In this document: positions 27,101 through 63,944 of the stretch, piece by piece
Layout: every line of letters begins with the position of its first letter
Position numbering within the stretch: position 1 is the first letter of the stretch
Source: Mactra quadrangularis
Lineage: Eukaryota; Mollusca; Bivalvia; Venerida; Mactridae
Reading direction: 5' to 3'
DNA length: 64,000 bases
Assembly (NCBI GenBank): GCA_025267735.1
Contig: CM046293.1
Coordinates: forward strand, 7,836,560 to 7,900,559
Notes under the pieces: generated by a model
The model's input: only the letters and a program-made list of their open reading frames with translations
Told to the model about the DNA's origin: nothing
Database searches by the model: none
Program-made: the position numbers and the translations under genes

Positions 27101-30100
27101 ATAGGAAAAGAGGGTCAAAGGCTTCAGACAGTTGGTACAAAAGGGGGGCAAGAAGTTGAAGCTCTAGACAGGGGCAAAACCAATTTCATTGGTGTCTTGC
27201 AAGTGAAACTTGAAACGGATTACATCTATATTCAAGCAGGCAAGAATGCAGAAATTGATAACATTCAACCCAGACTAGTTCATCCAAGGGTCAGGCCAGT
27301 AGATATCCAAGTTCCAACTAGTGTACCAATTGTTGCTGAAGCCAAGGATTCAGACAGTGAACATCATAACCTGTCTGGAGAAATAAGAAAAAGGAATTTC
27401 ATTCCAAGTACTGTTAAAAGAGAAAAAGACATTGATTTCATTAATGTCGTAGACAGAAAGGTAACCTCTGAGATTTCATCACATGTTACAGTGAAGGGAA
27501 TTAAACAATTCCAAATTGCATGCCACCCTGGGAGAGTGGGAATTTACCATGGGGGGGGTGCAACTACAGCACTAAAGCTGATCAACAATGGGGAATCTTT
27601 TCAAGATCAGATGTTGATGAAGTTGGACTTTCAGTCCAATCAAAGGTTGTCGGCAGGGTTCCAGCCCTGTCCTGAAGGCAACTACAGACACTCTTTGTTG
27701 TTGGGGTTTCACCTCAACAGAAGTGCAAGAAAGCCATAAGGCTGATATAGATCTCAATATCATTCTGGGATACTACGGATGGTGTTGAGCCGGATATGGT
27801 CGAACTGGCTCTTTGTTCTCCAGCAGTCAAGTATACTTAGGTGAATAGAGAACTATTCATCCTTAAAGGTGGGATGCTCTTTAAGCAAACCACAAATTCG
27901 GGCAAGTTGACTAGCAATTCAGGTTAGTTGACTGGCAATAGGGGTTAGTTGACTGGCAATACGGGCAAGTTGACTAGCAATTCAGGCACGTTGACTAGCA
28001 ATTCAGGCACGTTGACTAGCAATTCAGGCACGTTGGCTGGCAATTCAGGCACGTTGACTAGCGATTCAGGCACGTTGACTAGCAATTCGGGCACGTTGAC
28101 TAGCAATTCGGGCACGTTGACTGGCAATATGGGTTGGTTAACTGGCAATTAAAGCAATTTGACTAACAATATGGGCAGGTCGGCTGGCAATACGGGCAAG
28201 TCAACTGGCAATACGGGCAGGTCAACTGGCAATACGGGCAAGTCAACTGGCAATACGGGCGAGTCAACTGGCAATACGGGCGAGTCAACTGGCAATACGG
28301 GCTAGTCGGCTGACAATACGGGCTAGTCGATTGGCAATATGGGCAAGTCAACTGGCAATACGGGCAAGTCAACTGGCAATACGGGCTAGTCAATTGGCAA
28401 TACGGGCGAGTCAACTGGCAATACGGGCAGGTCAACTGGCAATACGGGCAAGTCAACTGGCAATACGGGCGAGTCAATTGGCAATACGGGCGAGTCAACT
28501 GGCAATACGGGCGAGTCAACTAGCAATTCGGGCCGGTTGGCTGTCAATTCGGGTTGGTTGACTGGCAATAAAGGTTGTTATCTAGCAATTTAATTTATTT
28601 AAGTGACATTCTAGATTTGATTGAAGATCATAGGAAATTTAGGGATATTGAATTATATACGGCCTGATGCACAGTATTTGCCCCATTTTTGTTAGCATCT
28701 AAGTCAAAAAATAAAGTTCTTGTAATTGAAATTATTTTTGTATTTTTATACAGAAAAATGCTTTCTGAAGAATGATTCAGTAGTAAAAAGATAAGATATG
28801 TGACCATATTCTAGAAATTTGACTTGCAAAAGAGTTGGTCTGGTTGGGGACGGACATTACAGATTGTGGAATCCTCAAATACTAAAAAGCTTTAAAAAGT
28901 TATTTAAGCATTATTTTGTAAAAAAGTTGATAAATTCAGTTAATAGAATCAATCTGCAGTTAACTACAGCGAAAGAAATTTTAAAATCAAGAAATTTAAA
29001 CGCTTTTGGTTCAAATCTTTATGATAGTTGATTGGCAAGTAGAAAATTTCAGATAATCAAATCTTATAGTTTTCCTCTCTTTTACCATTCCTTTCTAAAT
29101 ATTGATTGTGATATCTAAATGCAAAGTAATGGATATTAGGAGTAAAATGAGTCATAAATTATTGTTGTAAACCTTTGAATAAGAAAGTTATAGCATATTA
29201 AAGATGCTCAGTTACTGTGGGACGGACATTACAAAATTACCAAATTTGTCATAAATACTCATACAAAATTTTTATTTTGCAAGTGTTTGGTATTATTCTT
29301 TATAATTTATGCTAACTATGTATAAATAAACATATTTCTTAAGATACTTACTAAAAATGTTATGTTTTAATATGAATATTTACATATTTAGTAATAATTT
29401 ATGTAACCTTTTCTGTTTAGAGTATAACCCCAAAACAAGATAAGTCCATAACAGTTGTTGAAGTATTATGAAGAATTATATCTTAAAATACATAAATGCT
29501 ATTTTTACAGACAGCTACTCCAAAAAGTATCTGTTACAAATGTTTAATGAATTTGCAGTCATTTGAATTTTATCAATAGATTGTATAAAATTTAACTCAA
29601 TAAATAATTACCTCACATTCTTCATATATGTTTTTTCTTCACAAGATATTCTATAATCTTGGGCTGATACTTAACACTGAATTCCTGATAGTTTATGAAA
29701 ATGTTACACCCACTCATTTAAGTATTGATAAATGAATGTATGACTTAAATAACACTGTAATTTATGACACTTCAGACAATGCATCACAAAGCATCCCTTA
29801 ATTGGACTCCTACTGTGATACTGATGTGATTAACAGATAAGATCATACAGATCAGACAGACAGTGGATTATCTTATTACATAATCTTACATAATTGACCA
29901 CTACAGAATATTGCACCATTCAACAGTAATGTTACTTAAATATTGTATTATTAATTACAGAGTTATTAAATGCAAATAGTTAAAGAATAATGCTGGATTT
30001 ATGATATAACAGATTTTGTGTTTTATTCCTTACTGAAACTATTTTTAAGATTTATTTGCTAAATTTGGGATGAAAATTTTATTGTGTTGCCTTTTCACAT

Positions 30101-32590
30101 GCTGTCAAAACTATGAATATTTGTATGACAATAATTTCCATTTGTTCCTAAATACTTCAAGTTAATTATATTTTATGAAAATAAAAAATAGATGATACTT
30201 TTACGTAAGTTAGAGGATTTTTAATTTCGAAAGGGTTTTTCTTAATAATTTTATTGACTTAGACAAAAAGTTGTAGTAGAACTAATGTTTAAATAGAGCT
30301 AAATCTGATGAAAAAAGACTCAATAAGAATTTATTTTAAAATATTTATCATACTACAACTGTCAACTACAGATTCTTTTTGAAGGAGAAGAATAAGTTGT
30401 AAAATTATGGAAATCTGGTTAAATTGATCGTATTGATGGAAATTGGTGATTTTAGGACTACAGACAGCTTAAAATAGCTTCTTAATTTTAGCTTATAATT
30501 TCATAAAAAATGATTTTTGGTTGATGTTTTTGGATAATTGTGTATTGTATACTAAAGATACATTGGATATATAGCTTTTGATTGACATTTTTGGAAAATT
30601 AGTGATTTGAGAGAGGGGACAGACATTACTGTTATTTTTGGGGTTTCAGCTAATAACTCTTTTAAAAATACAACTAGGTTGGTCTTTTTTGTTTACCTGA
30701 TGTATTTTCACTGTAATACATTAAGTTAAGCAGAAAGTTTAGATAAACTTGGAAAAAATAGCAATTTTAAGCAGGGCGGGACGGACATTACGCGGGACGG
30801 ACATTACACAACTTTTCTATTTTTGCTATTTATTTCTTAAAAATGTAAATATTTTTGGGTGTTTTGGCTTATTTACTATCTTGTCACATAAATGAATAGT
30901 TCCATATGCTTAGTTTTGATATTTTTCATTAATTAGCAATTTTAGGAGGGTGGGACGGACATTACGGTTTTTTCGACACATTTCAATTTTTGTTCCAAAT
31001 TATGGAAATAACAAATTTACCATTATTTCAATACCTCAAGAAGTGATGAAAACTTGTACTTGTACCATATTTGAATGATATTAACTAACATCTATACAAA
31101 TCTTATGTTTTTATCATAAAAATTTATCAGTTACTGAAGTATATGGTTTTCTCAAAAATAAGACCATTACATCAGCACCATTTTCATTTTCCTTCAAATA
31201 AGAAAAAACGAACAATTTTACTGTAAATTGTTATCACCCATGTTTTAAAGCATGAAAATTTCTATAAAATGATCTTATGAGTTTTAAATTACAGTTTAAT
31301 TGCTCCAAAATTAAAAAATTTAAAAAAAGGTAAAAAAACTGATGCTAATTCATTACACCCCAAAATGGCCATTTTTGGACCCTAAAAATTACGATAACTC
31401 AAAAATGACTTGTGATAATTCAATATTTTTTTGCGCACACCAGCAACATGTAAGACTTTATAAGATAGAACTTTGTTTTTAGTATTCAAACTTTTACTTT
31501 GCAATTTATGTCTTTGTACATCTTTTTTGAAAAAAATGGGGCAAATACTGTGCACCAGGCCATACTTAACTAGTATACTATGATCTAATCTGGGATGTAG
31601 CGTCAAAGTGATTCCATCACCAGTTATTCAGACAGACGTCATTTCAGGGTGATTTCATCACCAGTTATTCAGACAGACGTCATTTCAGGGTGATTCAATC
31701 ACCAGTTGTTCAGACAGACGTCATTTCAGGGTGATTCAGTCACCAGTAATCCAAACAGACGTCGATTCAGGGTGATTCCATCACCAGTTATCCAAAAAGA
31801 CGTTACTTTAAGGTGATTCCATCACTACTTATCCAGTTAGAAGTCTTTTCGGAATAGCCCTCTTATCAGTTTTACTGATGGTTGGCTAAAAATTGATGTT
31901 GGTTTCTGGCCAGATTATCAAGAGAATCTCAAGCCTCCCCAGACCAAGTCCTTCTCATGTAAGGTTGGGGAAAGTGTTGTGATTTAGTGGTCTGTGGCCG
32001 GAGTGATTTGGTGGTGTGTGGCCGGGAGCCTCGTTTTGGGGTCTTCCGCCATGACGGGAACAGAAGCAGACGCGAAAAGTTAATTAAGGTAAAGTTTTTA
32101 CACTTTATGTCTTTGAATTGTTTGTCTGTCTGTCTGGTTAACTAAAACTCTATAATTGGCAATTATGGGATAAAAAATTACAAACATTCTGATACAATTT
32201 GGCAATATGTTATAGGGTTATAATGGCTATTTTTACAAAATTCACTTTCATATCCTAATTTCGTAGACTGATTTAGTGATATGGAACTGGAAGATTCATC
32301 AATCAACATTAATAACGGGACTGACAACAAAGATTTAACTGTCTTATATATTTATCTTATAGTAATGTCTACTAACCATAACGTCTGATCAGTGATAAGT
32401 TTAACCAAACATTGCGTTTTGGATTGTTTACAAACATCAAAATAACAAACCTGCAACAAGGACAACAGAAGTTGGCTTGCTGGACATTTTCCTCAAAACA
32501 TGGCAAGCACAACTCATGATCGCACGGCATTGTAACCGGTTGAACCAATATGTGCAAACATATTGGACAAATACTATCCTCCAGCCTCAT
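11062..32590 (-). CDS. RNF168: RNF168/RNF169-type E3 ubiquitin-protein ligase, eight exons
   Basis: Joining eight exons gives 2394 bases, 797 codons plus stop, with consensus GT/AG borders and matching phases throughout. In order: a C3HC4 RING (residues about 8-48, CPIC...CCPCCR); a basic stretch RMRISSWARK; an LRM1-like EPGEIRNEYLQQLK; a charged UMI helix; a MIU1-like EDEQLAKQL; a long serine-rich disordered region with basic NLS-like clusters; and near the C-terminus a MIU2-like DHKIALKLQKQF and LRM2-like RLKGTEEEYSLR. This order defines the RNF168/RNF169 family, which ubiquitinates H2A N-terminal lysines at DNA breaks and reads ubiquitinated H2A through the MIU/LRM modules in the nucleus. 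It is longer than human RNF168 (571 aa). RNF168 is favoured over RNF169 because the RING is canonical, but a pre-duplication ancestor of both is possible. Function is inferred from the family. Confidence 0.9.
12375..12665 (+). mobile_element. tRNA-derived SINE (family 4), copy 1, in RNF168 intron 7
   Basis: A degenerate tRNA-like head (AACTAAGTTGGTGGG, box B-like GGTTCAATTCC) is followed by the same body as the better-preserved copy at 44744-45051 (GCTTGGTCATGAAAT, AAGTATGCGC, TAAAATGTGTTGCTA). It ends about 26 bases before the donor of exon 7. Confidence 0.75.
12691..12965 (-). CDS. RNF168: RNF168-like exon 7
   Basis: 275 bases between a TTTTTTTAG| acceptor and CAG|GTATGA. It encodes a Pro/Arg-containing linker (CPLTPPRRLPSGKVIEPKL) and ends in a charged helix (MQRRLSQLADERKDQ). 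A tRNA-derived SINE sits only about 26 bases beyond the donor, inside intron 7. Confidence 0.8.
13208..13323. repeat. Perfect two-copy 58-bp tandem duplication
   Basis: Two directly adjacent, essentially identical 58-base units start at 13208 and 13266. They lie inside a degenerate repeat (13020-13440) whose ends share the words CCAGTCTGA and CAGTCCAGTGA. Confidence 0.9.
14679..14843 (-). CDS. RNF168: RNF168-like exon 6
   Basis: 165 bases between ATTACAG| and G|GTATGC. It encodes low-complexity Ser/Thr-rich sequence (VKTSSPSTLTNTLSTASLHQ, then STSPDTG). Phases fit exon 5 (one base carried in) and exon 7 (one base carried out). No domain is recognised; the support is splice signals and phase. 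Confidence 0.75.
14887..15433. mobile_element. hAT-like element with CAGGGCTTGACA ends
   Basis: The ends CAGGGCTTGACA and TGTCAAGCCCTG are inverted repeats, and the adjoining TGATTTTTAAAGTAGATTGC and GGGTGACTTTTAT are also partly complementary. CAGGG-type ends suggest hAT. No clean 8-bp target duplication is left. Another MITE is nested inside. Confidence 0.65.
14969..15351. mobile_element. MITE nested in the hAT-like element
   Basis: A perfect 20-base inverted repeat, CAATATTAACCTGAGCTTGA and its complement, bounds 383 bases of AT-rich sequence. A related fragment lies near 1069. Confidence 0.75.
15921..16296 (-). CDS. RNF168: RNF168-like exon 5
   Basis: 376 bases between ATACACAG| and G|GTTTGT. 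It encodes a Ser/Thr-rich linker (TPSTDTTMENF, SKSPYPYGCLTP) and a basic stretch (HFMKRKLRKDKN). The TPIN/PYGCLTP part may correspond to the linker segment after MIU1 in vertebrates. No domain is recognised. Confidence 0.8.
16297..17157. other. RNF168-like intron 4
   Basis: About 860 bases of AT-rich intron with no recognisable repeat boundary or ORF. Confidence 0.6.
17158..17307 (-). CDS. RNF168: RNF168-like exon 4 (UMI and MIU1)
   Basis: Exactly 50 codons, phase 0 at both ends, between ATCAG| and |GTTGGA. It is a highly charged helix (RAEERRKEMEASERLIKQL) ending EDEQLAKQLSQ, the MIU-type ubiquitin-binding signature. A second AG six bases into the exon (CTTCAG|GAACAG) could remove two residues by alternative acceptor use. 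Confidence 0.88.
17653..17723 (-). CDS. RNF168: RNF168-like exon 3 (LRM1)
   Basis: A 71-base exon between TATTCCAG| and |GTAAGT. The peptide LAEPGEIRNEYLQQLKV aligns with LSKPGELRREYEEEISKV of human RNF168, the LR motif that helps target RNAi-independent ubiquitin reading at damaged chromatin. Phase closes exactly with both neighbours. Confidence 0.85.
17841..17883. repeat. Near-perfect palindrome
   Basis: The arms GATCAAACACATGTATTGAA and TTCAATACATGTTTTTGATC meet with almost no loop. It lies beside a second palindrome and the left end of the 18.0-21.8 kb element. Confidence 0.8.
17897..17975. repeat. 39-bp-arm palindrome with one-base loop
   Basis: The arms 17897-17935 and 17937-17975 are complementary at 38 of 39 positions with a single-base centre. 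This is a strong cruciform. It starts 14 bases after the previous palindrome and ends 34 bases before an inverted terminal repeat. Confidence 0.9.
18010..21845. mobile_element. Putative DNA transposon with perfect 33-bp inverted ends, in RNF168 intron 2
   Basis: Bases 18010-18042 and 21813-21845 are exact inverted repeats (33 of 33), beginning CTTGACGTCAAACAAATTGC. No target duplication was recognised. The 3.8-kb interior is mostly non-coding, but it holds a short minus-strand ORF at 20082-20243 in a GC-richer patch and a run of CGGC/GCGAAATCG words at 18910-19050. A decayed or non-autonomous element is the simplest reading; two separately inserted fragments facing each other is the alternative. 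Confidence 0.6.
20082..20243 (-). pseudogene. Short ORF inside the TIR element, possible transposon protein N-terminus
   Basis: 53 codons from ATG (GAGACATGAC context) to TGA in a locally GC-rich block (20100-20340). The peptide has a well-composed N-terminus (MTESQRARWLLSAPAMDEVN) and an acidic-basic middle ending IERDSKDSV. This composition recalls N-terminal segments of large uncharacterised proteins common in mollusc genomes, but I cannot name the family with confidence. The stop after KDSV suggests truncation. It could be the first exon of a spliced gene, although no donor is evident. Confidence 0.35.
21846..23342. other. Rest of RNF168-like intron 2, repeat-rich
   Basis: No exon seen. 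It contains a dispersed repeat at 22620-22780 (also at 57765-57930, inverted), the word CGGTTATTTCCCTTTAT at 22884, and GGACGC-rich repeats at 23125-23210. The 89-codon ORF at 22269-22538 has no recognised domain. Confidence 0.5.
22620..22780 (+). repeat. Dispersed repeat, partner of 57765-57930
   Basis: It contains GAATGTAAACATTGCCACGT followed by GCTTTCAGGTAAATAA. The complement of both words, in the same order, is at 57770-57800, with matching flanks (CTATTTGTTCAGTTTACTTG). Confidence 0.65.
23343..23491 (-). CDS. RNF168: RNF168-like exon 2
   Basis: Acceptor ..TATTATAG|G completes the split Arg codon of exon 1. The peptide RMRISSWARKKARTNSLVNQ aligns with the RING-proximal basic segment of human RNF168 (RRVSSWTRY...NSLVN), which contacts the nucleosome. 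It ends in an acidic run (DDEDDEE) at donor G|GTTAGT. Length is 149 bases; one base carries into exon 3. Confidence 0.88.
23524..24597. other. RNF168-like intron 1, distal part
   Basis: AT-rich with a small repeat (TATAAAAATTTGC/TATAAAAATTCCCC at 23998-24052). The 20-base word ACTGCATTGATAAAACAATT recurs at 24100 and 24811. No exon seen. Confidence 0.5.
24598..24780. mobile_element. Foldback MITE
   Basis: Arms of about 80 bases (24598-24678 and 24700-24780), starting TTCGCCAATTTTTCTCC, are complementary with few mismatches around a 20-base centre. They include the TATATACCGCATTTGTAT and ATACAAATGCGGTATATA pair. Confidence 0.85.
25010..25142 (+). repeat. 5' LTR
   Basis: It begins TGTTGTGATTTAGTGG and ends ACACTTTA. 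It differs from the 3' LTR only in TTTTGAGG versus TTTTGGGG. It is preceded by TGTC. Confidence 0.85.
25144..25155 (+). other. Primer binding site-like sequence
   Basis: TGGTGTCAGAAG lies one base after the 5' LTR. TGG is the complement of a tRNA CCA end, and the rest fits a leucine-type tRNA acceptor stem. The tRNA identity is inferred. Confidence 0.6.
25455..27104 (+). CDS. Gag polyprotein with N-terminal helix-hairpin-helix, capsid and CCHC knuckle
   Basis: Uninterrupted 549-codon ORF. Residues about 10-50 (LIDLNTANERELRDFIPGVG, then KKKAKQL) match a ComEA-type helix-hairpin-helix DNA-binding motif, unusual for a Gag. A Lys/Glu/Ser-rich linker follows with two near-identical DSSSSEDE segments. 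Residues about 270-440 (LRYNGKESWLSFKLRF...) match a retrotransposon Gag capsid. A CX2CX4HX4C zinc knuckle (CYFCNLDGHWKRDC) is near the C-terminus. The protein would form particles and package RNA. The intact frame suggests recent activity or selection. A minus-1 frame remains open across the stop, as in gag-pol overlaps. Confidence 0.85.
   Translation: MASKPDREAGFQDLIDLNTANERELRDFIPGVGKKKAKQLVRLRRSKGQLTLDMVEDTIGKSLRGSGIHDREDCGHSPQYKFGYHTPPNPDSITKMKPKQEIYDKKSQEMNGTELHKDLQGDADFIRRLSELRKQRSSEVQEVTRKQSKGGEGDESDDASDIALRFAAIVKERKEREAKKSREPDMSKNMEELLKRGFIKDKFAKTYSDSSSSEDERAAMKAKKSKKKNKSKEIEAVLKKVLSKDKFESDSSSSEDEVVVRGNPRRVPKNLRYNGKESWLSFKLRFTSIQQNLKWSAQESMDYLGWCLEGKALDYFAMTTQAKRKMNFDEIFEKLEKRFGISEVEGTARMEFQQIVQRGNESLEDWYDRVVTLAMSAFRDVPESFTQGEMITRFCQGCMDSEAGKQALFKDPKTMEEALNIIKNFQFISMAVESEGKKKKRDDRVQVNSVDEDVEDRTSQMLREVMKRLERLEEKMGNTCSNQGKSADVSVKMEGSKKNCYFCNLDGHWKRDCKKYQQWLEKKAKEKALNDDLKGQGQRGLIQPLSPQE
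27059..27790 (+). pseudogene. Degenerate pol start with protease-like remnant
   Basis: The minus-1 frame relative to gag is open from before the gag stop to 27739 (its first Met is at 27197). Near residue 120 of that part, YHGGGATTALKL sits where retropepsins carry DTGATT, with a G-run replacing the catalytic Asp codon. After a frame slip, ADI...IILGY at 27745-27770 resembles the C-terminal ILG element of the protease. Homology stops there and the minisatellite begins. The protease reading is an inference from two short motifs. Confidence 0.4.
27895..28592 (+). repeat. 21-bp minisatellite, about 33 copies
   Basis: Units of the form ACGGGCAAGTCAACTGGCAA plus T repeat with a 21-base period. 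Two homogenised blocks are visible: a GGCACGTTGACTAGCAATTC type (about 27.96-28.13 kb) and a GGGCAAGTCAACTGGCAATA type (about 28.17-28.52 kb). Because 21 is a multiple of three, several frames stay open on both strands, which makes spurious repeat ORFs. Confidence 0.95.
28657..31565. mobile_element. AT-rich, ORF-less element with inverted ends and six GGGACGGACATTAC motifs
   Basis: Inverted ends 28661-28690 and 31532-31561 (GGCCTGATGCACAGTATTTG onward) match at 29 of 30 positions. Between them lie 2.9 kb of very AT-rich sequence without a credible ORF. The 14-base word GGGACGGACATTAC occurs at 28847, 29219, 30778, 30794 and 30952, plus one variant (GGGACAGACATTAC) at 30616, all on the plus strand. 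Such a GC-containing word recurring exactly in an otherwise AT-rich background is not chance. It is nested in the LTR element. No transposon family is recognised. Confidence 0.65.
31608..31840 (+). repeat. 41-bp minisatellite, about 5.5 copies
   Basis: Units start GTGATTCCATCACCAGTTAT and contain AGACGTCATTTCAGG. The first three are nearly identical and the last ones diverge. GTGATTCCATCAC is itself a small palindrome. It lies between the inserted AT-rich element and the 3' LTR. Confidence 0.9.
31963..31974 (+). other. Polypurine-tract-like sequence
   Basis: GGTTGGGGAAAG directly precedes the 3' LTR, where plus-strand priming would start. It is interrupted by TT, so the assignment is moderate. 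Confidence 0.45.
31975..32107 (+). repeat. 3' LTR
   Basis: 133 bases, identical to the 5' LTR except one base, followed by the TGTC target duplication. It lies about 340 bases from exon 1 of the RNF168-like gene. Confidence 0.85.
32451..32590 (-). CDS. RNF168: RNF168-like exon 1 (RING domain)
   Basis: It encodes 46 codons plus two bases. All eight RING ligands are here: CPIC, the C of MPCDHELC with its H, CLPC and CCPC. The start is firm because an in-frame TAA lies six bases before the ATG and ETS-type promoter sites lie just beyond. The exon ends ..TGCAG|GTTTGT. It is followed by a roughly 9-kb intron holding an LTR element. Confidence 0.9.
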
Positions 32591-35925: not shown

Positions 35926-37923
35926 ATGAATTGTAAGATCTTCACCAACGTACCTTTTTCACCACAGGAAGGGATATTATATTTTATTTATGAAACTAGA
36001 CAAGCCCATAATAAATTTTTAAAGTTTAGAAATCCAAAAAATTGGGAATACTATAGAAAGCTTAGAAATCGTAAAGAAAAGATTAAACGTAACTTAATAT
36101 CAATGTATTTCTATGAAAGATGTAGTGGTGGACCGAAATCAAAGGACTTTTGGAGTACCACCAAACCATTTTTATCTAATAAATCATCAAATAAGTCATC
36201 AGAAATCATATTAAAGCAAGAAAATAAAATTATTTCAGATCAAAAAGATGTCTGCTCAATTTTAAATGACTATTACATAAATATTGCCAAAAATATTGGA
36301 ATCACAAACCAAATTGTTTTAGATGAAACATATCCAAGTATTATTCAAATAATAAAAAATAACCCAACAGTTGAACATTTTAATTTTAGTCATGTTTCAC
36401 AAGAAACAATTCTCAAATGTTTTAACTCATTAAATACCAAAAAGCCACAGGTTGTGATGGTATTCCTCCTACGATTTTAAAGATTGCGGGTAAAACTCTA
36501 GCGGACCCCACATCTAAAATTATAAATGCTATGATTGATTCATCTACCTTCCCATCAGACTTAAAACAAGTCCAAGTTACCTCTATTTTTAAGTAAGAAG
36601 ACTCTTTTATCTAAAAAAAATACTACAGACCTGTAAGTATACTTCCTACCATGTCCAAAATCTATGAAAGAGTTTTAAATGATCAACTCCATTCCTATTT
36701 TAACAGTATTTCTAATGTAATTTTATCTGCTTTCAGATCTGGTTAGTTACAGCTGTCAGACAACACTACTGCGCGTGGTTGAGGACTGGAAGATTGCTTT
36801 GGACAAGGGTGACCATGTGGCAGGAATTTTAATGGATCTGTCGAAAGCTTTCGATTGCATCCCCCACAACCATCTAGTCTTAAAGCTGCGGGCGTACGGG
36901 TTGTCTGACAGCGCGACCAAGCTCATACATAACTATTTATCAGAAAGAAAACAGAAGGTGAAAATTGGGGAGGCATCAAGCACATGGCTTGAAATTTTAA
37001 AAGGAGTACCACAGGGTTCTATACTAGGCCCTATGATCTTTAATATTTTCATTAATGATATTTTTTACTTCGTAGAACAATCAGAACTTTACAATTATGC
37101 CGATGATAACACTCTCTCTTTTAATCACTCAGATATTAATGTTTTGAAATCAGTTTTAGAAAAAGAAAGTTGTAATCTAATTGATTGGTTTAATTTCAGC
37201 CAAATGAATCCAGATAAATTTCAAGCTATTGCAATTGGGAAACATACTCATGATGCCTCCCCAACTTTCAACTTTGGTGATGTACATATAAGTTGCGATG
37301 ACACGGTGAAGCTGCTTGGGGTAGATCTTGATTTCATATTAAATTTTAATTATCAAATTACAAAAATGTGCAGAAAACCTGCTTTGCAACGTAATGTTCT
37401 CTTGCGTTTGAGTAAATTACTTGATTTTAACAACAAAATTCGTATATATAAATCTTTTATAAAATCCAACTTTAACTACTGCCCTCTTGTTTGGCATTTT
37501 TGTAATAAGACAAATACTGAAAAACTTGAAAAATTACAACACAGGGCTCTCAGAATTACATTTAATGACTTTTCACCATCTTACAGTGAACTTCTACAAA
37601 GAGCAAACATGCCAACATTACACCTTAGCAGACTGAGGGAACTAGCCACTGAAACCTTCAAATGCTTATATAACATCTCAACCTCTTATCTCCATGACTT
37701 GGTTCATTTTAAGTCAAACAATTATTCTTTCAGATATTCTAATACATTAGAACTACCTACAGTTAAAACAACTACTTATGGTAAGAAATCATTCAGATAT
37801 GAGGCAGTGTATGTGTGGAACAGCCTTCCGAATGAATTCAGACAGGTAGACAGTTTTAAAGAGTTCAGAAGGCTGGTCCGCACCTGGACTGGCCACTCAT
37901 GCAAATGTTCATTATGTATTTAG
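35926..37923 (+). pseudogene. LINE reverse transcriptase, frameshifted
   Basis: Two open parts, 35926-36480 and 36775-37923, belong to one ancestral ORF. The first (YRKLRNRKEKIKRNL, SLNTKKP) is the region before the palm. A frame slip near 36450 and in-frame stops near 36595-36610 break the middle, where GCDGIPPTILK and YYRPVSILP are still legible in other frames. The second part has the catalytic blocks LMDLSKAFDCIPH, GVPQGSILGPMIFNIFIND and YADDNTL, then the thumb and the C-terminal LEKLQHRALR domain. The YADD catalytic box is intact but the copy cannot make a whole protein. Confidence 0.85.
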
Positions 37924-40072: not shown

Positions 40073-40594
40073 TTAAACGTATGGTATAAATATCATTTCT
40101 TCATCTTCTTCGTTTTCTTCCTCGTACATTTCTTCCGGATATTCTTCAGGGCTTTCATCAGATTCTGAATCAAAGATATCTGATTCTGCTGGTTCTACCT
40201 GTTGCCATGGATCATTGTTGACATTGTTGTTATGCTTGTTGAAGGTGATCTCCTGGCAATGGTTGTTACACTGAACTGATTCAACAGTACACAAGTTATC
40301 CTTACCAATCATCACGTTGACCAGGCATTGGTAGAAACCTTTCTGATTCTTGTTATACCAAGCACAGGGATGTGGATCACCTCTGTATGAACATTTTGGT
40401 GGGTTGGGATTTTTCTTGTTTTTGGTGCAAGTAATGGAGAGAGAACGCTCGTGTTTTCCACAATTATTTGGATGTTGTTCACTCCATTTGCATTGCATCC
40501 CTTGATATGTGAATTTCACATTTTTCGTGTTGTCACAATTGACGACATAAACGGTTGCCATAACAACCGCTAGAAGCAACAATTTCATGGCCAT
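40073..40594 (-). CDS. Secreted FGF-binding-protein-like protein, copy A
   Basis: 173 codons in one exon. Residues 1-20 are a signal peptide (MKLLLLAVVMATVYVVNC). The body has the spacing of the FGFBP family: CKW, L-x-I-x-CT, CSYRGDPHPC, an aromatic pair in KGFYQ, then C-x6-C. It ends with an acidic tail (EEYPEEMYEEENEEDEE). In vertebrates FGFBP proteins release FGFs from matrix heparan sulfate; here only the cysteine frame supports the assignment, so secretion is firmer than function. A TTTATTTCAG acceptor 13 bases before the ATG implies a 5' non-coding exon. Copy B at 50653-51180 is the paralogue. Confidence 0.75.
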   Translation of the reverse strand: MAMKLLLLAVVMATVYVVNCDNTKNVKFTYQGMQCKWSEQHPNNCGKHERSLSITCTKNKKNPNPPKCSYRGDPHPCAWYNKNQKGFYQCLVNVMIGKDNLCTVESVQCNNHCQEITFNKHNNNVNNDPWQQVEPAESDIFDSESDESPEEYPEEMYEEENEEDEEMIFIPYV

Positions 40595-40695
40595 ACTGAT
40601 TAGTACGCTGAAATAAAGATGGAATAAAATCTTTGAAGTAAATAAAAAAGATCACGTGACTCTACGGTTAAGTTATACTATTATGACCATCAAAA

Positions 40696-45051: not shown

Positions 45052-45424
45052 AGTGAAGGTAAAAGCACGATTTGATTCCCCAGCAATTCCTTGCTTTGTC
45101 CGGGGGATGAGATGCTTGTTAAATATAACACGTTACATTCTCATCATCCCCTCTTCCCCTCACGTACATACATTTAAGTATATTGACACAAGTGCTAGAA
45201 ATATCTTGGTCATTTTATAAGAGGCGGAAAATAAATGGAGTAAGTTTCCTTGATAAGATCTTAACCAGAATTCACCCAGATTTCATCTAAAAGTTCACAT
45301 GTTTACGTTATATTAAGGAAGGTACTTTAAGATGATCCTTAGTTATTTTATCATTATCATCAAATATAGAATCCACGTCAGCATCAGTAACACTTATAAT
45401 ACAGATATACAATAATACAGAGCC

Positions 45425-45852
45425 CCTAAAGTGACATTTTGAAATACATTTACTATTTTTAATTTTACAATTATTTCGATTTTTAGGATAATATCATTTC
45501 GGTTGTTTTTATTTTCAAAATAAATATTTTGAGATAATTATTTTCAGAATACTTTTTTTGTAATTACGAAATATCATTTCGTTTAAACTGAATATTATTT
45601 CGTAAATTAGACAAAATTTAACATTTATTTACGTAATACATCATTACATAATATCATTTCGTTTTGACGGATAATTTTAACGCAATATTATTTCGTACAA
45701 AAGGAAGTAATATTATTTAGAAAAACTCGCAATATTTACGCAATATAATTCGTTTAAACAAAATAATACATGCATTATTTGTAAAAAAAAAATATTTCGT
45801 GTAAACGAAAGATTCGTAAAAATAAATAAGTATTTCAAAATGTCACTTTAGG
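45425..45852. mobile_element. AT-rich element with perfect 23-bp inverted ends and AATATCATTTCGTTT motifs, unit A
   Basis: 45425-45447 and 45830-45852 are exact inverted repeats beginning CCTAAAGTGACATTTTG. Inside, about eight or nine variants of ACGAAATATCATTTCGT (itself near-palindromic) recur every 20-80 bases. No ORF. Unit B has a decayed copy at 54182, so it predates the duplication. Confidence 0.75.
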
Positions 45853-46560
45853 TACTCCATATTAACATACTACAACTTCTTGGTTAAAACGATTTGAATA
45901 TTTCAAAAACAATTAAAACCACAGGAAGTTAGATGATTAGATCATGTATTATAATATACATGTACATTCAGATGTTTTATATTGATAAACATTTTTAAAT
46001 CACAAAATCACGAAATACTAAGTGATCTGAAAGTGTTTAAATATTTTAAATTTTCATGTATCAAACAGATAAAAACTTTAATTAAGTGGACACTTAACCA
46101 TTATTATTGCTATACATGCTGTACATTTTTATATACATTACATACATGCAACGTCCTCATGTCAATTATAATAAATTAGAAATTGTTTTATATCTAATTC
46201 TTGCAGCAACCAACACATAAAAATCAATCAGTAACTCATGAAATAACAATTACTCAATAGCATGTGAATTTATACCATTGCTCATTCTGAATCTTCTTCA
46301 CAAAATATTTTGACAAGTTCAAGACCTTTGTATAGCTCAACTCAGTCAATTTTCGGCTGAGGGCGTAGAGTTTACGATTTAAGTTTACAGGAGAGGATCG
46401 ACAGTACATAGAAAATTGGAACTGTCTGAGTCGTTCTATTGTGTATAAAGTACATCGAAAGAAGAAATGTTCAGCAACCTCGCGAACTTTACAATGATTT
46501 CATAATTTATTATCAAAAATTAAGACTAGCACTATAATGTTAGTAATAAAGTGTTAATGG

Positions 46561-50652: not shown

Positions 50653-51180
50653 TTAAACGTATGGTATAAATTTCATTTCTTCATCTCCTTCGTTTATCTC
50701 ATCGTTTATTTCTTCCGGATATTCTTCAGGGCTTTCATCAGATTCGGAATCAAAGCTCTTTGATTCTGTTGGTTCCACCTGTTGCCAAGGAAAATTGTTG
50801 ATATTGTTGTTATGCTTGTTGAAGGTGATCTCCTTGCAATGGTTGTTACAGTTAACTGAAGACGTAGTACACAAGTTTAATTTTTTCTCACCAATCATCA
50901 CGTTGACCAGGCATTGGTAGAAACCTTTCTGATTCTTGTTATACCAAGCACAGGGATGTGGATCACCTCTGTATGAACATTTTGGTGGGTTGGGATTTCT
51001 TTTGTTTTTGGTGCAAGTAATGACGAGAGAACGCTCGTGTTTTCCACAATAATTTGGATGTTGTTCACTCCATTTGCATTGCATCCCTTTATATGTGAAT
51101 TTCACCTGTTTCGTGTTGTCACAATTGACGACATAAACGGTTGTCATAGCAACCACTAGAAGCAACATTTTCATGGCCAT
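50653..51180 (-). CDS. Secreted FGF-binding-protein-like protein, copy B
   Basis: 175 codons, paralogue of 40073-40594 with every cysteine conserved: signal peptide MKMLLLVVAMTTVYVVNC, CKWSEQHPN, CSYRGDPHPC, KGFYQC, an acidic tail and a shared C-terminal FIPYV. Copy B has two extra residues (an EKK insertion before LNLC) and a changed loop (TTSSVNC). Substitutions cluster in the loop and tail, while the segment from PPKCSYRG to NVMIG is unchanged. A TATTTCAG acceptor 13 bases upstream of the ATG is kept. Both copies are intact, so both are probably functional genes. Confidence 0.75.
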   Translation of the reverse strand: MAMKMLLLVVAMTTVYVVNCDNTKQVKFTYKGMQCKWSEQHPNYCGKHERSLVITCTKNKRNPNPPKCSYRGDPHPCAWYNKNQKGFYQCLVNVMIGEKKLNLCTTSSVNCNNHCKEITFNKHNNNINNFPWQQVEPTESKSFDSESDESPEEYPEEINDEINEGDEEMKFIPYV

Positions 51181-51193
51181 ATTGGTTAGTACT

Positions 51194-51896
51194 CTGAAAT
51201 ATAGATTGGATAAAATCTTTGATGTGAATAAAAAAGATCACGTGACGCTACGGTTAAGTTCTTCTATTATTCATTCACATCAAATTTATGGTTTTCTTAA
51301 GGAAACGACCTAAATATTGGAATAAATTTCATCAGAAATTAAGCGATTGTGACTTAAAACGTTCCCATCTTTGGTCAGATTAGGGCTCAAGTTATAAACA
51401 TTGATATGATGTTATTTACTACAACTTAATAACGAATGTCTGTCTAGAATGTTTGAAGGTGTAATCAGATTTAAAAAAAGAATTTACATTGTAGTGGAAA
51501 ATACAAATTAAATATTCATTTTTGCATTTTAGTAATTGAAATAGCGCCCATAGGAGGTCAACATGGTTTTGAGGCACAGTGTTTTTGTCTTGGAACCGTG
51601 TTTGCTACCTATGACCATTAACCACTCTGATAGCATATAAGAATTATAACAGCAATCACAACAATGATACGATTATGGGGAAATTATTCTGCTAATGGAA
51701 GCCCCCCCCCCCCCCCGCAGACTATAAAAGTCAAAGAGAAGTTCAAAAACTGTACGAAAACTACATTCTTGTACAAATATTTCAAATATTTCATTTATTT
51801 CAACTCTTAATCGTAACAATGCCAGTGTTAAGACAACTCAGAATTGCGTTTATGAAAATATGCCATGCAATCAAATAATTTCATTTAGATACTTAC
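51194..51896 (-). other. Inferred 5' UTR intron of FGFBP-like gene B
   Basis: Donor GTAAGTAT (51889-51896) and acceptor TTTCAG (51194-51199), 703 bases. It keeps the empty SINE site near 51364 and a C-run of about 14 at 51703. Confidence 0.5.
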
Positions 51897-53020: not shown

Positions 53021-53021
53021 C

Positions 53022-53843: not shown

Positions 53844-54181
53844 CCTTTCACTGCCGTGGGGCAAGAGTATGGGTCAAATGGCTGGTGTATTACTTTTTTA
53901 TCATCCCCTTTTCTCTTCACGGACATACATATAATTTTATTGACTTATTTACTGAAAGTATCCTGTATCCTGGTCATTTTATAAGAGGCGGAAAATTAAA
54001 TCTAGCAAGTTCCCTTGATAAGATCTTAACCGGAATTCACCCGGATTTCTACTGAAAGTTCACATGTTAACGTGATATTCAAGAAGATACTTTAAGATGG
54101 CCTTTAACTGTATATCATTATCATCAAATATAAGATCCGTGTCAGCATCAACAACATACACGTACGCTTCAATACGGACCC

Positions 54182-54480
54182 CCTAAAGTGATACTTTGAA
54201 ATACATTAATTATTTTTAATTTTACAATCATTTCAATGTTTGAGATAATATTACTTCGGTTGTTTTTATTTTCAAAATAAATATAATGAGATTTTTTTCG
54301 GAATATCTTTTTTGTAATTACGAAATATAATTTCGTTCGATCAAAATATTTCGTTAGATAGGCATAATTTTAACATTTTTACGTAATACATATAATATCA
54401 TTTCGTTTTTACGTATACTTGTAACTTAATATCATTCGTATTAATTTTATTTAGCAAAAATCGATATCTTTAGTTTTTAT
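54182..54480. mobile_element. Decayed unit-B copy of the AATATCATTTCG element
   Basis: The left end CCTAAAGTGATACTTTG matches 45425 with a few changes, and AATATCATTTCGTTTTTACG-type motifs remain. The right inverted end is lost. Confidence 0.65.
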
Positions 54481-56354: not shown

Positions 56355-56900
56355 TATAGTGCGTACAAAAAACAAAACACTGTTTATAATAACAATACAG
56401 TGAACTAACCCTCGACAAGGGATGCCCAGAATGACTTTAAAATAAACAATTGTGATATGTATTATAGTTCTATTACATTAACCTGTCACAACTTAAATAA
56501 TTACACGGTCACTGAATCTATTTTTTTAAACCCCTTTCGAACTTGTTATTTCCCCGATAATCAAAATTGTCGCATATATAATTAGATTATCAATTATTAA
56601 TATTGATTGGTGGCTCAATGTTTTAAAACAGATTAAATAATAACACATTAAGTGACCGTGTAATTATTCAAGTTGTGACAGGCTAATGTAATAGAACTAT
56701 ACAAGTGTCTTAGTTGTTGGGGTAATGGAAAGCGTTCTATCATAACAAGCATGATTTACAGTGGTGGTGGTTTATCAACCATGCTAATTTTGTTAAGATG
56801 AATTACACAAATTTTATTTTCAATACTGCCTACCCCTGAAATGAATTGTCTCAATTTTAATGTTTACCAAAACACGTTTTGTTTTTTTGTACGCACTATA
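56355..56900. mobile_element. Tc1/mariner-like MITE (A1) interrupted by another MITE
   Basis: Ends TATAGTGCGTACAAAAAACA and its complement (TTTTTGTACGCACTATA). TA at the tips fits a TA target duplication. B1 is inserted at 56463-56701. Confidence 0.8.
56463..56701. mobile_element. MITE B1 nested in A1
   Basis: Ends TATAGTTCTATTACATTA and complement; the inverted similarity runs about 50 bases (to ACACGGTCACT/AGTGACCGTGT). 239 bases, TA-type target. Confidence 0.85.
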
Positions 56901-56904
56901 CGAG

Positions 56905-57147
56905 AAACGCTCAGGATGACAATAACATGAACATGTGATATGTTTTACGATTGTCTTAGTTGTTAGTGTAATGGAAAATATTTTTACCAACACAAGCATG
57001 ATTTACCAACAAATGGTGGTATCCATCATGATAATTTTGTTACAATGAATTACACACATTTTATTTTCATTACTGCCTACCCCAGAAATGGATTGTCTCA
57101 TTTCTAATGTTTACCAAAACACGTTTTGTTTTTTTGTACGCACTATA
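56905..57147 (+). mobile_element. MITE A2, left-truncated, left arm of a long inverted repeat
   Basis: Same family and orientation as A1 but lacking its left ~70 bases. It is complementary to A3 over 241 bases. Confidence 0.85.
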
Positions 57148-57180
57148 AGTTAAATCGTTTGTGTACATAATGGAACGAGG

Positions 57181-57488
57181 TATAGTGCGTACAAAAAAAC
57201 AAAACGTGTTTTGGTAAACATTAGAAATGAGACAATCCATTTCTGGGGTAGGCAGTAATGAAAATAAAATGTGTGTAATTCATTGTAACAAAATTATCAT
57301 GATGGATACCACCATTTGTTGGTAAATCATGCTTGTGTTGGTAAAAATATTTTCCATTACACTAACAACTAAGACAATCGTAAAACATATCACATGTTTA
57401 TGTTATTGTCATCCTGAGCGTCCCTCGTAGTGGATTAGTTTGTTCTATTGTTATTATAAACAGTGTTTTGTTTTTTGTACGCACTATA
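57181..57488 (-). mobile_element. MITE A3, inverted, right arm of the long inverted repeat
   Basis: 57181-57421 is the reverse complement of 56907-57147 with very few differences, across a 33-base spacer (57148-57180). It keeps both family ends. Confidence 0.88.
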
Positions 57489-59515: not shown

Positions 59516-59699
59516 TACAGTAAATTAATATGTTACTAATTTACTGGATATAATAAATGAAAATTTGATTAATAATTTGAGTGGACAAACTAATTTAATT
59601 GCCAAAATGTAAGCCATTTATATAAAGAAAACGGGAAAATGGGGTTAATATACAGTTTACAGTAGACAATTTATTATAGGATCATTGGGAAGTGCTATC

Positions 59700-60157
59700 A
59701 TTAGGGATGCGCGATAATACCGGTATACCGGTATATTGCAATACGTCTAAAACAATACGTACCGGTACGGTCCCGCAATAAATCGCGATATTTTGATCTT
59801 AATCTTATAGACTAAATTTGCATACTCGAACCTGTTTTGCATTATTTGTGGCCGAATATTTGACCGGAATCTATTTCATTTTTGGTTTTCCTTTTATCTA
59901 TTTTTAGCATAAAGATCTAGAATAAAGTATTGACATATCTACTTTAGACGACTTTAAAATTTAGTAGAGGTGTTGGAACTGACGAATGTTTTTTATCATT
60001 AGCCATTGAGTTAGATACGAAAAGAATATATGTTTTCGTAAAATTCAGTTGGCATCATTAATATTTTATTTCACTTTAACCATTTCTTATTTTGTACGCG
60101 TCCGCATTTTTACTCTTATCCTTTAAATTGTTGACCGCATTTTCCCTCTATATCTAT
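59700..60157. other. Non-coding, possible one-ended hAT remnant
   Basis: TTAGGGATGCGCGATAATAC followed by ACCGGTATACCGGTAT and TATTGCAATACG resembles hAT-MITE sub-ends. No matching right end was found. Confidence 0.35.
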
Positions 60158-60741
60158 TAGAGCTGCAACGATTCACCGGAAAGTCGATTCGATGCGATTC
60201 GATATTTTTCTTTCGATTCGATTTTTTTCGATTCGATTTATCTATTAGAATAATTTACTCCAAATATGCATTTATACATTTATTTGAGATTAAAACTATT
60301 TATTATTGATAAAATAAAAGTGTTACTCAAATTAAATTCACATGAAACCCGAAAATCTGCTAAATTAAGATTGCTTCTTTAAGTACGAAATGGACTGGGT
60401 ACGAATATAAAGGTCGCAAAAATGTATCATTAATATAATATCAACTAAAACGTATCTATTATAGATACGAGTCTATATATACAACATGAAACATAAATTG
60501 TATCAGAATATGCAGCTCTTAATATACTGCAGATAACGCCTTGCTACTTGATTTAATAAAGGGAAATAGCCGTTGCGGGGAGTTAGTGTCATTTAGGTGC
60601 CCTTTTGCTTTTATGCTTATAACTTATGTAGATACGTTTAAAGGTCAGTATCGAATCGAAATTCGTGGGTCCCGAATCGAAATCGAATCGCCGCCCTCGC
60701 AGTCGAGTTTCGATGTATCGAATCGAATCGTTGCAGCCCTA
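60158..60741. mobile_element. hAT-type MITE with 8-bp target duplication
   Basis: Ends TAGAGCTGCAACGATTC and GAATCGTTGCAGCCCTA are inverted (16 of 17). ATATCTAT flanks both sides (60150-60157 and 60742-60749). The sub-terminal regions carry many GATTCGAT/ATCGAATC words in opposite orientations, typical transposase-binding repeats. No ORF. Confidence 0.9.
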
Positions 60742-60785
60742 ATATCTATATCGTCTGCCTAACGCGTCCGCCTTTTGGACTTATC

Positions 60786-63700
60786 AGTGCAGCCGTTCTC
60801 CAGAAATCGTTACCATTTGAAAAGTGAAATGTCGAAAAATGAACTTACTGTAAACATTCATTTTTTACCATAATTGCAAAATTCAAACCTTCGTGGTCTC
60901 GAAACAAAAATATAACGCACACCATTCTAAGACTGAGAAAGATATACGAGTTCAAAAAGTATACGTCAACTACTACGTTACGGAGCATAGAATCACGAGC
61001 TCAAGAAGTAGATACCTAGTTTTAAAATGCAAGTCTGTATTTCTGTCCATGTAAGTATGGAATATCATTCAATGGTGAGTAGTGAAACAAATTTAAGCAA
61101 ACTACTTCGCAATATATACATGATTGTCAGAATAGCGCATGTAGAAGTCATCATCATTTTTTGTTTTTAAGATAAGATAACGTAACACAATTATGTCATC
61201 ATGTGTATTTGTCATATACAGACATGTGGACCATTCTTTTCCAAATTCATGAAAACTACAACATATAAGGCACAAAATAAAATGTAAATTAGTTTGAAAC
61301 ATGACACTGTATGCTCATACATAATGACATATTTGATGTGCCATGGAGTTACGGAACATAGTAAAAATTAGAAAGTCTTGCCAATTCGAACAAAACTGCA
61401 TTTTAATATCGATTAAACAATACAAAAGTATGATTTATTAACAGCACAGAGTATTTCCTTATGTTTTTAACAAAATTTAAGTTTAAGTGTTGCCATATTA
61501 CAAAATTACAATAATACTGAGCTTTGAAACAAATGAGACATATGAAGTAAGTATGATGGAATTAACCTAACTAAAATGCACTTTTACTGATATGTTCTAG
61601 AGTGTATACCATGTAGATATATGAAATATACGACACTGATCGTGATGAACATTATAAATAGTCAATAAATTAGCTATTTGCGAAAAATTACTACGCTAAG
61701 CGGCGTTACGGAACATATGCTAAGCACCACGATGGGAAATGATTATATTAACAACCCATTCGTTTGGGTTTGACATAGTAATTTTTAGTGACCGTGTAGG
61801 CCAAATAACTATTATGCAGTAAAATGGGTAAATTTTAATCCGGGCGAATTAAAACTCGAGGAAGCGATCAGACTAAAACTAGTGAGAAACATTTTTATAT
61901 TAACAATCACATTTTGGAATGAAATCAAATCCAGAAACATTTTTTATAAATTTTATGCATAGTTTAGCTTAAATTTAACTTTGGTCAAATATTGCATTTG
62001 ATATATATACCTAAAATGAAAAGAACTGTTTTGTCATATGTGTATTTACAAAGTATTTCTAAAATTGAACTGGCAAACACTTTGGTATTGCTAAATTTAT
62101 TTTGTAATATATTTTATTTTCATTAAAATACTGCAATCACTTATTAAAGTATTTACTTGTTTCTTACCCCATGATAAAAGTTAATAAAGTAAGAATATCA
62201 TTAAATAATTATAAATAGTATGGTATCTAAAGTTAGCTTAGCAGATGTGGTCTTTAAAGAAATTTGATAAGATATTCCATCATATGTTATGCGTTCCGAA
62301 ATTCCGAGCTGTTTTATTCGGATTTTGAATATATGTGTCGTAGGTGCAAGAGACGTTTAAAATTGTCTTTGTGCAACGTCTCTGATGGGTGCTCATGTTG
62401 ATATTGGTCATCAGTGGTAAAGACATTTTTTCGAAGCAATAACTGGAAATGTCAACTGATAACGTACAAGATAAAATGAAACTTTTGAATGATATCAACA
62501 TTCTCAAATCTTTAGACATGCTGATTTTTAGGTCATTGTTTTAATGTGTAAGAATCATTGTTAATTCGATTCAGACATTGCCAATTTGTTAAATATTCTT
62601 TATTGTTGTTATGACCATAATTTTGCATAAATTGGCTACACAAATATTGTTTTGTTACAAATTTGAAACACATACAGGTGTGTCAAATCTGAAAATCTCC
62701 ACGGACGCAACTATTTTCATCAATTTTCATCATATAAGACTGGAAAACGTTCAGTTAGTCTGTTTACGTAGTAAAAGTACTGTGATGATGTGAAATGCAT
62801 TCAATTTAATTCAATGATCGCATAAATCGTTATTATTACAATCTATGTTCCGTAACAAGCCCTCTATACTCCGTAACGAAATGAATTTTCATTCTCAATT
62901 AAGAGACATCAACATTATGTCAATGAATGTATATATAATTGTAATATTAATACTATGACAGTCATCCATTACACAGATTTCATATTTATCCTTCATCCTG
63001 TACCTGCACTAAAATATGTTTTCTTACACATGTACCGTAATTGTTAGTGCTAAGGCCTAATTTTGCTTTTAACATGATCAAATGATCAAAAGAGGAATAT
63101 CGAAAACTATAACAGCTTGTTTCTTCCATAAATTATATCATATAGCATGTCAAATACTTGTTACGGAGAATAGTCGTTACGGAATCCCTGTGTTCCGTTA
63201 AAGTTTCCCTAAATAAATATAGAAGTAACAATAAATGTACGCGTTACTTGCACTTGATCACACCAATGTACAGTGGCAAACAACAATTCAATGTAAAAAC
63301 ACCTATATTGTCGATAGCAACTGTGCTACGCTCGTTATGGAAGCATAGTTTCTTAAATGCGACATTTAAAAATTTGAGTTTGGGGTTAATTTGTTCTTTC
63401 TCCTTAGGACAGATAAGATTCAAACTTTGTTTCCCACGATATTTGACTCATTTTAGTATTAGTAAACGGTTTAACAATTAACAACCACACCTTTTGGAAA
63501 GTAATTTAACCATGCAAAAATAGTTACGGTAACATAGGACTGTTTTAGAGACAACCCTAAAAAGTAGAAAATCTTAGAATTTTATATTCGTATCAGTAGA
63601 ATATCTTTAAAATCATACAAGTCACTACCCACATATGGAAAATAAATACATATTACAAGCAATAACAAACCTTAGATTAATTATTTTTCAAAGCAATTAT

Positions 63701-63944
63701 TAAAAATAGAGCTGGAGACACGGCCTTTTTCTACTTATTGAAGTTTTTGCTTAGCAAACTTTTGCCAAAAGGCGTAAGTTTTCAATGTTTCTTTTGTACC
63801 ACTTTAGCAACAACAATCTAAGTTAACATTTCCAAATGATTAAAACCATAAGTGTTGTTTCACGTTGTGTATATAGTCGTATATAACCTGGAGACACGTG
63901 TTTTTCAAAATGGTTACCATTTCTGGAGAACGGCTGAGTGATGT
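60786..63944. mobile_element. AT-rich element with inverted ends and dispersed GTTACGGAACATAG motifs
   Basis: CAGCCGTTCTCCAGAAAT (from 60790) has its complement at 63918-63935, and similarity extends outward (GGACTTATCA/GGACATCA) and inward (GTTACCATTT). Inside, the motif or close variants occur at 60977, 61348, 61705, 63160, 63176 and 63523 on the plus strand and 62843, 62864 and about 63190 on the minus strand. CTGGAGACACG recurs at 63714 and 63889. No credible ORF in 3.15 kb. No transposon family recognised. Confidence 0.6.

What the first reader, a model, noticed from the sequence alone, without database searches (positions are those of the whole stretch)
28657..63944. A recurring element design: inverted ends, no ORF, AT-rich body, one private motif per element
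Three separate stretches (28657-31565, 45425-45852 and 60786-63944) share a design but not a sequence. Each has 20-30 bp inverted ends, a body too AT-rich to code, and five to nine copies of one element-specific motif: GGGACGGACATTAC, AATATCATTTCGTTT or GTTACGGAACATAG. Two of the motifs share an ACGGA(A)CAT core. Seen directly: ends and motifs. Inferred: the motifs are binding sites for a trans-acting transposase or host factor, or remnants of a replication strategy. I know no named family with this description, but I cannot search.
Basis: partly seen in the sequence, partly recalled or inferred. Interest (0 to 1): 0.8.

Follow-up and report, generated by a model that had tools for sequence, protein, structure and literature searches.

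The report
Long non-coding transposons with conserved motifs
Two of the three stretches are real jumping-DNA families, about 3 kb long and without genes, that carry a repeated short DNA word at similar positions, possibly a docking site for a protein made elsewhere; the third stretch looks like an ordinary small transposon of another kind.

Summary
E1 (28661-31561) and E3 (60790-63936) are real, recently mobile, protein-less TIR transposons. E1: 21 end-to-end genomic copies. E3: 37 of 40 scored loci match over at least 3.0 kb at 95-100% identity, from 778 candidates. Both make 4-bp target duplications: exact in 16 of 21 E1 copies and 16 of 17 full-length E3 copies.
Each carries its own motif. 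In E1 the six sites vary eight-fold less among 21 copies than the whole element; 0 of 5000 circular shifts matched that. E3 shows only a non-significant trend (436 of 5000).
New: the bodies do not align, yet the motif lies at nearly the same places: 190/563 against 192/563 from the left, 781/765/607 against 774/758/600 from the right; 8 to 17 of 200,000 random placements do as well. But copies of one family tolerate spacing changes.
E2 (45413-45864) does not belong: its ends suggest a TA-flanked mariner-type MITE, and its second copy sits in a segmental duplication.
Best mechanism: transposons moved in trans, the motif being a binding site for the unseen transposase or a partner. The search for an autonomous partner did not complete.

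The parts
28661..31561 (+). E1: non-coding TIR transposon, 2901 bp
   Evidence: 21 end-to-end genomic copies; ends and TSDs; no ORF beyond chance
28657..28660 (.). E1 left target-site duplication ATAC
   Evidence: exact 4-bp duplication in 16 of 21 copies
31562..31565 (.). E1 right target-site duplication ATAC
28661..28690 (+). E1 left TIR
31532..31561 (-). E1 right TIR
28847..28860 (+). E1 motif site 1
   Evidence: identical in 21 of 21 copies
29219..29232 (+). E1 motif site 2
   Evidence: identical in 20 of 21 copies
30616..30629 (+). E1 motif site 3 (ACAGA variant)
   Evidence: variant itself kept in 19 of 21 copies
30778..30791 (+). E1 motif site 4 (first of the 16-bp pair)
   Evidence: 20 of 21 copies
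30794..30807 (+). E1 motif site 5 (second of the pair)
   Evidence: 21 of 21 copies
30952..30965 (+). E1 motif site 6, 158 bp after site 5
   Evidence: 21 of 21 copies
60790..63936 (+). E3: non-coding TIR transposon, 3147 bp (the other 16 full-length copies fetched: 3173-3181 bp)
   Evidence: 778 candidates, 40 scored, 37 of them matching over at least 3.0 kb; TSDs in 16 of 17 full-length copies
60786..60789 (.). E3 left target-site duplication AGTG
63937..63940 (.). E3 right target-site duplication AGTG
60790..60823 (+). E3 left TIR
63903..63936 (-). E3 right TIR
60977..60990 (+). E3 motif site 1
61348..61361 (+). E3 motif site 2
61705..61718 (+). E3 motif site 3
62843..62856 (-). E3 motif site 4 (reverse)
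62864..62877 (-). E3 motif site 5 (reverse)
63160..63173 (+). E3 motif site 6 (first of the 16-bp pair)
63176..63189 (+). E3 motif site 7 (second of the pair, core only)
63334..63347 (+). E3 motif site 8, 158 bp after site 7 (core GTTATGGA)
63523..63536 (+). E3 motif site 9 (core GTTACGGT)
45413..45864 (.). E2: unrelated short TIR element, probably a mariner-type MITE (span of the inverted arms; exact ends and TA flanks inferred)
54171..54472 (.). second E2 copy, without the right end, inside a segmental duplication

Best explanation
E1 and E3 are two families of long, non-autonomous cut-and-paste (TIR) DNA transposons of one mechanistic type. Shown: fixed ends with ~30-bp TIRs, 4-bp target duplications, a ~3-kb body without an ORF beyond chance, multi-copy and recently mobile families, and an array of one private motif. 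Inferred: a protein made elsewhere, the transposase itself or a DNA-binding partner encoded by an unseen autonomous element, docks on the ends and on the internal motifs; each family has its own version of the motif because it follows its own version of that protein; copies that lose motifs multiply less, which keeps the motif nearly unchanged in E1. E2 is an unrelated, probably mariner-type MITE.
For: E1 has 21 end-to-end copies with 4-bp duplications in 16 of 21. E3 has 37 of 40 scored loci matching over at least 3.0 kb and duplications in 16 of 17 full-length copies out of 18 loci fetched. Longest ORFs are at shuffle level. E1 motif sites: non-modal fraction 0.0023 against 0.018 overall, 0 of 5000 circular shifts as low; the 7 CpGs inside motifs average 0.43 variants in 21 copies against 3.45 for the 11 outside. 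Matched offsets between E1 and E3 with bodies at background identity. Random placements that do as well: 2 of 200,000 with window-copy offsets and 1-bp tolerance; 8 of 200,000 (7 plus-strand sites) and 17 of 200,000 (all 9 sites) with majority offsets and 2-bp tolerance. A spacing-only scan for the 16/158 triple scores 27 or more of 36 in 18 of 21 full-length E1 copies and 15 of 17 full-length E3 copies.
Against: E3's motif is not significantly more conserved than its body (436 of 5000 shifts), and CpGs in its motifs are not more conserved than others. Within each family the motif spacings are no more constant than other intervals of the same length, so the matched spacing is not an absolute need. 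In diverged E1 relatives (L025-L028, pieces at 74-87%) the motif is kept well in L026 (0-1 mismatch at three sites) but decays in L025 and L028, and the first spacing ranges from 354 to 374. E1's motifs all point one way and the sites lie from 0.19 to about 1.1 kb from the nearest end, unlike classic sites within 200 bp. No transposase or binding protein was found. The E1-E3 TIR likeness is weak (14 matches reached by 1275 of 20,000 shuffles; run of 7 by 194 of 20,000).
Confidence: 0.6

Rival explanations
1. The motif is not for transposition but for expression or anti-silencing in trans: a family-specific protein binds it and keeps the element open, as VANC proteins do for plant VANDAL elements.
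For: Several copies of a private motif in non-coding DNA, all in one orientation in E1, with a related but different motif in E3. [quoted passage not shown]
Against: VANC motifs accumulate by tandem repeat formation (same passages); here the tandem repeat finder reports only the 16-bp pair as a motif array. No VANC-like protein was sought; VANDALs are plant elements. E3 has two reverse sites.
Confidence: 0.2
2. A host protein binds the motifs, and the conservation reflects use by the host or descent from a master copy rather than a need of the transposon.
For: Both motifs share an ACGGA core, as two sites for one host protein might; young families descend from few master copies, so low variation can be inherited (general knowledge).
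Against: Descent from a master does not explain why motif sites are 8-fold less variable than the rest of the same 21 E1 copies, CpGs included. The motifs differ outside the core.
Confidence: 0.12
3. The matched motif positions in E1 and E3 are a coincidence, and the two are unrelated ordinary non-autonomous transposons.
For: Bodies at background identity and no significant profile hit; spacing not constant within families; TIR likeness weak; other sites do not match; the test was chosen after seeing the match.
Against: Two left-end sites within 2 bp and a triple with gaps of exactly 16 and 158 bp; 8 of 200,000 random placements (7 sites) or 17 of 200,000 (9 sites) do as well, with the tandem pair granted. 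A scan of the whole window with E1's spacing alone ranks E3 next after E1 on the + strand, though only 1 point above the best minus-strand hit (28 against 27 of 36).
Confidence: 0.2

Closest known systems
Academ (AcademX) DNA transposons
   Same: 3-4 bp target duplications (stated in PMC10045372, passages); a bivalve-specific amplification is reported (PMC10294476, passages, abstract included)
   Different: Defined by a coded protein; E1 and E3 have no ORF beyond chance and no partner was found. Termini were not compared.
KolobokP
   Same: Especially rich in bivalves; solo repeats flanked by TSDs of 3-4 or 4-5 bp (PMC9587614, passages)
   Different: Built as long terminal direct repeats around an internal region; no long direct repeat was reported at the ends of E1 or E3.
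Ac/Ds (hAT) subterminal motif arrays
   Same: Several copies of a short transposase-binding motif, also in non-autonomous elements (AAACGG; PMC3260210, passages)
   Different: Ac motifs lie in the terminal 200 bp; hAT makes 8-bp duplications (recalled). Here 4 bp, and sites 0.19 to about 1.1 kb from the nearest end.
VANDAL / VANC (plants)
   Same: Private, same-orientation motif arrays in non-coding DNA that differ between related families (PMC5735166, passages)
   Different: Plant elements with coding genes; motifs accumulate as tandem repeats; no matched layout between families in the passages read.
Tc1/mariner MITEs (for E2 only)
   Same: Short, AT-rich, TIRs, TA next to both inferred ends
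   Different: No independent second insertion examined here; superfamily inferred from ends and flanks alone.

Membership tests
Non-autonomous TIR DNA transposon (E1, E3) | inverted ends shared by independent copies | tested here: met
   both ends in 21 of 21 E1 copies (one with a changed left tip of 5 mismatches) and 17 of 18 fetched E3 loci
Non-autonomous TIR DNA transposon (E1, E3) | target-site duplication of fixed length | tested here: met
   4 bp exact in 16 of 21 and 16 of 17
Non-autonomous TIR DNA transposon (E1, E3) | no own transposase | tested here: met
Academ (AcademX) | 3-4 bp TSD | tested here: met
   length. Also fits Ginger1 (4 bp)
Academ (AcademX) | Academ transposase in an autonomous partner with the same ends | not tested
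   TIR pattern search of the genome did not complete (and 23 repeats)
KolobokP | long terminal direct repeats | tested here: not met
Kolobok / piggyBac | TTAA target duplication (both stated) | tested here: not met
   varied 4-mers, none of the exact ones TTAA
hAT (Ac/Ds) | 8-bp TSD (recalled) | tested here: not met
   flanks repeat over 4 bp, not 8
VANDAL/VANC-type anti-silencing | family-specific motif array in non-coding DNA | tested here: met
   (resemblance, not membership)
VANDAL/VANC-type anti-silencing | VANC protein and loss of silencing | not testable with these tools
   needs expression and methylation data
Tc1/mariner MITE (E2) | TA target duplication | tested here: inconclusive
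   TA next to both inferred ends of one copy; no independent insertion fetched

The most novel reading that the evidence does not exclude
E1 and E3 stand for a large, unrecognised group of animal transposons defined by a layout rather than by a sequence: a ~3-kb non-coding body in which a short word sits at set distances from the ends, each family with its own version of the word, co-evolving with a family-specific binding protein; an animal counterpart of the plant VANC system, or a new way of building the transposition complex over kilobases.
Probability: 0.18. Interest if true: 0.75.

Novelty: new variant of a known kind. Interest (0 to 1): 0.5.

Why it matters
Non-autonomous DNA transposons are usually thought to need little more than their ends, and so to shrink (general knowledge). 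Here two families hold many ~3-kb copies without genes, and one keeps an internal word under clear selection. If that holds, the interior of a gene-less transposon has a job, and families with unrelated bodies share its layout. It gives a concrete handle (a 14-bp bait) to fish out the protein. If only coincidence links the two, they remain two good, catalogue-worthy families.

Tried and rejected
Class of three: rejected, E2 differs in ends, length and flanks. E1-E3 homology of bodies: blastn within the window gave only short weak matches, ungapped registers and a profile search found none. Strict functional spacing: not supported by within-family length variation. Coding remnants: no ORF above shuffle level; ORFs listed for four diverged or interrupted relatives (L029, L028, L026, L025; L023, L024 and L027 were not listed) showed no evident transposase by eye and were not scanned; a reverse-transcriptase-like ORF in L028 lies beyond the E1 match. 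Rfam (gathering threshold) and tRNA: nothing in the window. E1 TIR, E1 double motif and E3 TIR: 0 exact hits in viral contigs; E3 TIR: 0 in genome contigs. E1 motif as a text string in papers: 0. Topic searches showed, by titles and abstract starts, no such layout: 1 paper; 0; 10 of 18 listed; 10 of 60 listed. Generic over-represented-word test: too weak for E1 and E3. My first chance estimate (2 of 200,000) used window-copy offsets with 1-bp tolerance, under which the majority offsets would miss one of the two left sites; the rerun with 2 bp gives 8 and 17 of 200,000.

Full report
What was checked. The window lies in a 979-Mb assembly of 447 contigs.

E1 and E3 are real transposons. E1 spans 28661-31561, E3 60790-63936. 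A genome search with E1 returned 301 candidates, of which 40 were scored; 21 rows cover the query from end to end, at 92-100% identity including the window copy. I read these 21: both ends are present, with a changed left tip in one, and the 4 bases outside the ends are identical in 16 of 21. E3 returned 778 candidates, 40 scored; 37 of those 40 match over at least 3.0 kb at 95-100% identity. Of 18 E3 loci fetched, 17 are full-length, and 16 of these 17 have an exact 4-bp duplication. Because only the best 40 candidates are scored, these data cannot say how many shortened copies exist.

They have no ORF beyond chance. The majority sequences have longest ATG ORFs of 64 aa (E1) and 79 aa (E3), which 31% and 18% of 200 shuffles reach. 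One stop-to-stop ORF of 111 aa in E3 (63146-63481) has no Pfam match. The families are young: mean pairwise divergence is 2.9% among the 21 E1 copies and 2.0% among the 17 E3 copies.

The motifs. At up to 2 mismatches, GGGACGGACATTAC occurs six times in E1 and nowhere else in the window, and GTTACGGAACATAG six times in E3 and nowhere else. In the 21 E1 copies the six sites have a mean non-modal fraction of 0.0023 against 0.018 for the whole element; none of 5000 circular shifts of the site pattern reached so low a value. CpG positions, which usually mutate fast (general knowledge), average 0.43 variants at the 7 CpGs in motifs and 3.45 at the 11 outside. This is good evidence that E1 needs the motif. 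For E3 the nine sites have 0.0065 against 0.0122, and 436 of 5000 shifts do as well: a trend, not a result; CpGs in E3 motifs are no more conserved than others (0.56 against 0.51; all).

The matched layout. Measured on majority sequences, the ACGGA core starts at 190 and 563 from the left end of E1 and at 192 and 563 in E3. From the right end the offsets are 781, 765 and 607 in E1 and 774, 758 and 600 in E3: a triple with gaps of exactly 16 and 158 bp in both. The bodies between are at background identity: 45 of 146 positions against a background of 43.2 with SD 5.7 in the right block, and 100 of 359 against 107.6 with SD 8.7 in the left block; a profile of E1 does not find E3 (best E 1.7). 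In random placements with the tandem pair granted, 8 of 200,000 (six against seven plus-strand sites) and 17 of 200,000 (six against all nine) match as well at 2-bp tolerance; with window-copy offsets and 1-bp tolerance it was 2 of 200,000. These tests were designed after seeing the match, so they overstate the case. A scan of the window by spacing alone ranks E1 first (36 of 36) and E3 next on the + strand (28), with T-rich hits on the other strand at 27. The same scan gives 27 or more in 18 of 21 full-length E1 copies and 15 of 17 full-length E3 copies. Remaining sites do not match: E1 has one at 1961, E3 has others at 924, 2765 and two reversed at 2065 and 2086.

What speaks against a strict spacing rule. 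Within E1, the 187-560 interval has changed length in 29% of copies and the 2135-2293 interval in 14%, about the same as other intervals of equal length; E3 is alike, except that its 158-bp interval changed in none of 17 copies, as is also true of a third of comparable intervals. In diverged relatives of E1 the motif is partly kept (L026) and partly decayed (L025, L028), and the first spacing ranges from 354 to 374. So the layout may be preferred, inherited from a common design, or a coincidence. I put coincidence at about one in five.

E2 is something else. Its ends (35 nt, 89%) can be read with TA on both sides, as a mariner-type MITE; this is inference from ends and flanks. The second copy at 54171-54472 is part of a larger segmental duplication, with paralogous blocks scattered over about 39.4-48.0 kb and 50.0-56.2 kb, and shows no right end. 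It is therefore no independent insertion. Its repeated word is more than chance (five copies at up to 1 mismatch; at most 3 in 60 shuffles). The genome search for E2 did not complete.

Mechanism. The simplest reading is cut-and-paste transposition in trans. Facts: ends, duplications, absence of ORFs beyond chance, motif conservation in E1. Inference: the motif is bound by the transposase or a partner protein. Ac/Ds shows that short repeated words can be the transposase's docking sites (PMC3260210, passages); VANDAL/VANC shows that such words can instead be targets for a family's own anti-silencing protein and can differ between related families (PMC5735166, passages). The one-way orientation in E1 and the internal positions fit the second case at least as well as the first; I rank docking for transposition first because it is the commoner need of a gene-less element (judgement).

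Family. The varied 4-bp duplications do not fit hAT (8 bp, recalled), mariner (TA), Kolobok or piggyBac (TTAA). KolobokP is not met for want of long terminal direct repeats. AcademX (3-4 bp) and Ginger1 (4 bp) remain among those I considered; bivalves are reported to have amplified Academ (PMC10294476, passages). I do not file E1 or E3 under any of them.

Literature. In the parts of their lists that I saw (titles and abstract starts) no such layout is described; no repeat catalogue such as Repbase was available, so either family may already have a name there.

Noticed in passing
25010-25142 and 31975-32107: Two direct repeats, 132 of 133 bases identical, flank a gag-like ORF (25449-27104, Retrotrans_gag/PNMA) and E1: they look like LTRs of a retroelement into which E1 has jumped. 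Target duplication of that element not settled.
   Followed up: partly
40073-40651 and 50653-51237 (- strand): Two diverged copies of an FGF-BP1-like secreted protein gene in a segmental duplication (E-values 5.8e-07, and 4.2e-05; the second falls just below Pfam's cut-off).
   Followed up: partly
about 18000-21855: Another TIR pair (46 nt, 89%, 3.76 kb between) without an evident private motif.
   Followed up: partly
27895-28533 and 31608-31850: Tandem arrays with 21-bp and 41-bp units lie close on either side of E1.
   Followed up: no
56899-57429: Near-perfect palindrome: arms of 249 nt, 99% complementary, with further repeats around it.
   Followed up: no
36721-37923: Reverse transcriptase ORF (RVT_1, 1.9e-17), probably of a LINE-like element.
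   Followed up: no
L029 (G000:C3:15557000-15566999): An E1 copy split by two insertions, with 2 and 4 bases of E1 repeated at the break points.
   Followed up: partly
L028 (G000:C2:7127000-7136500): Three diverged pieces of the left third of E1 recur at about 2.0-2.2 kb steps, as in a tandem array.
   Followed up: no
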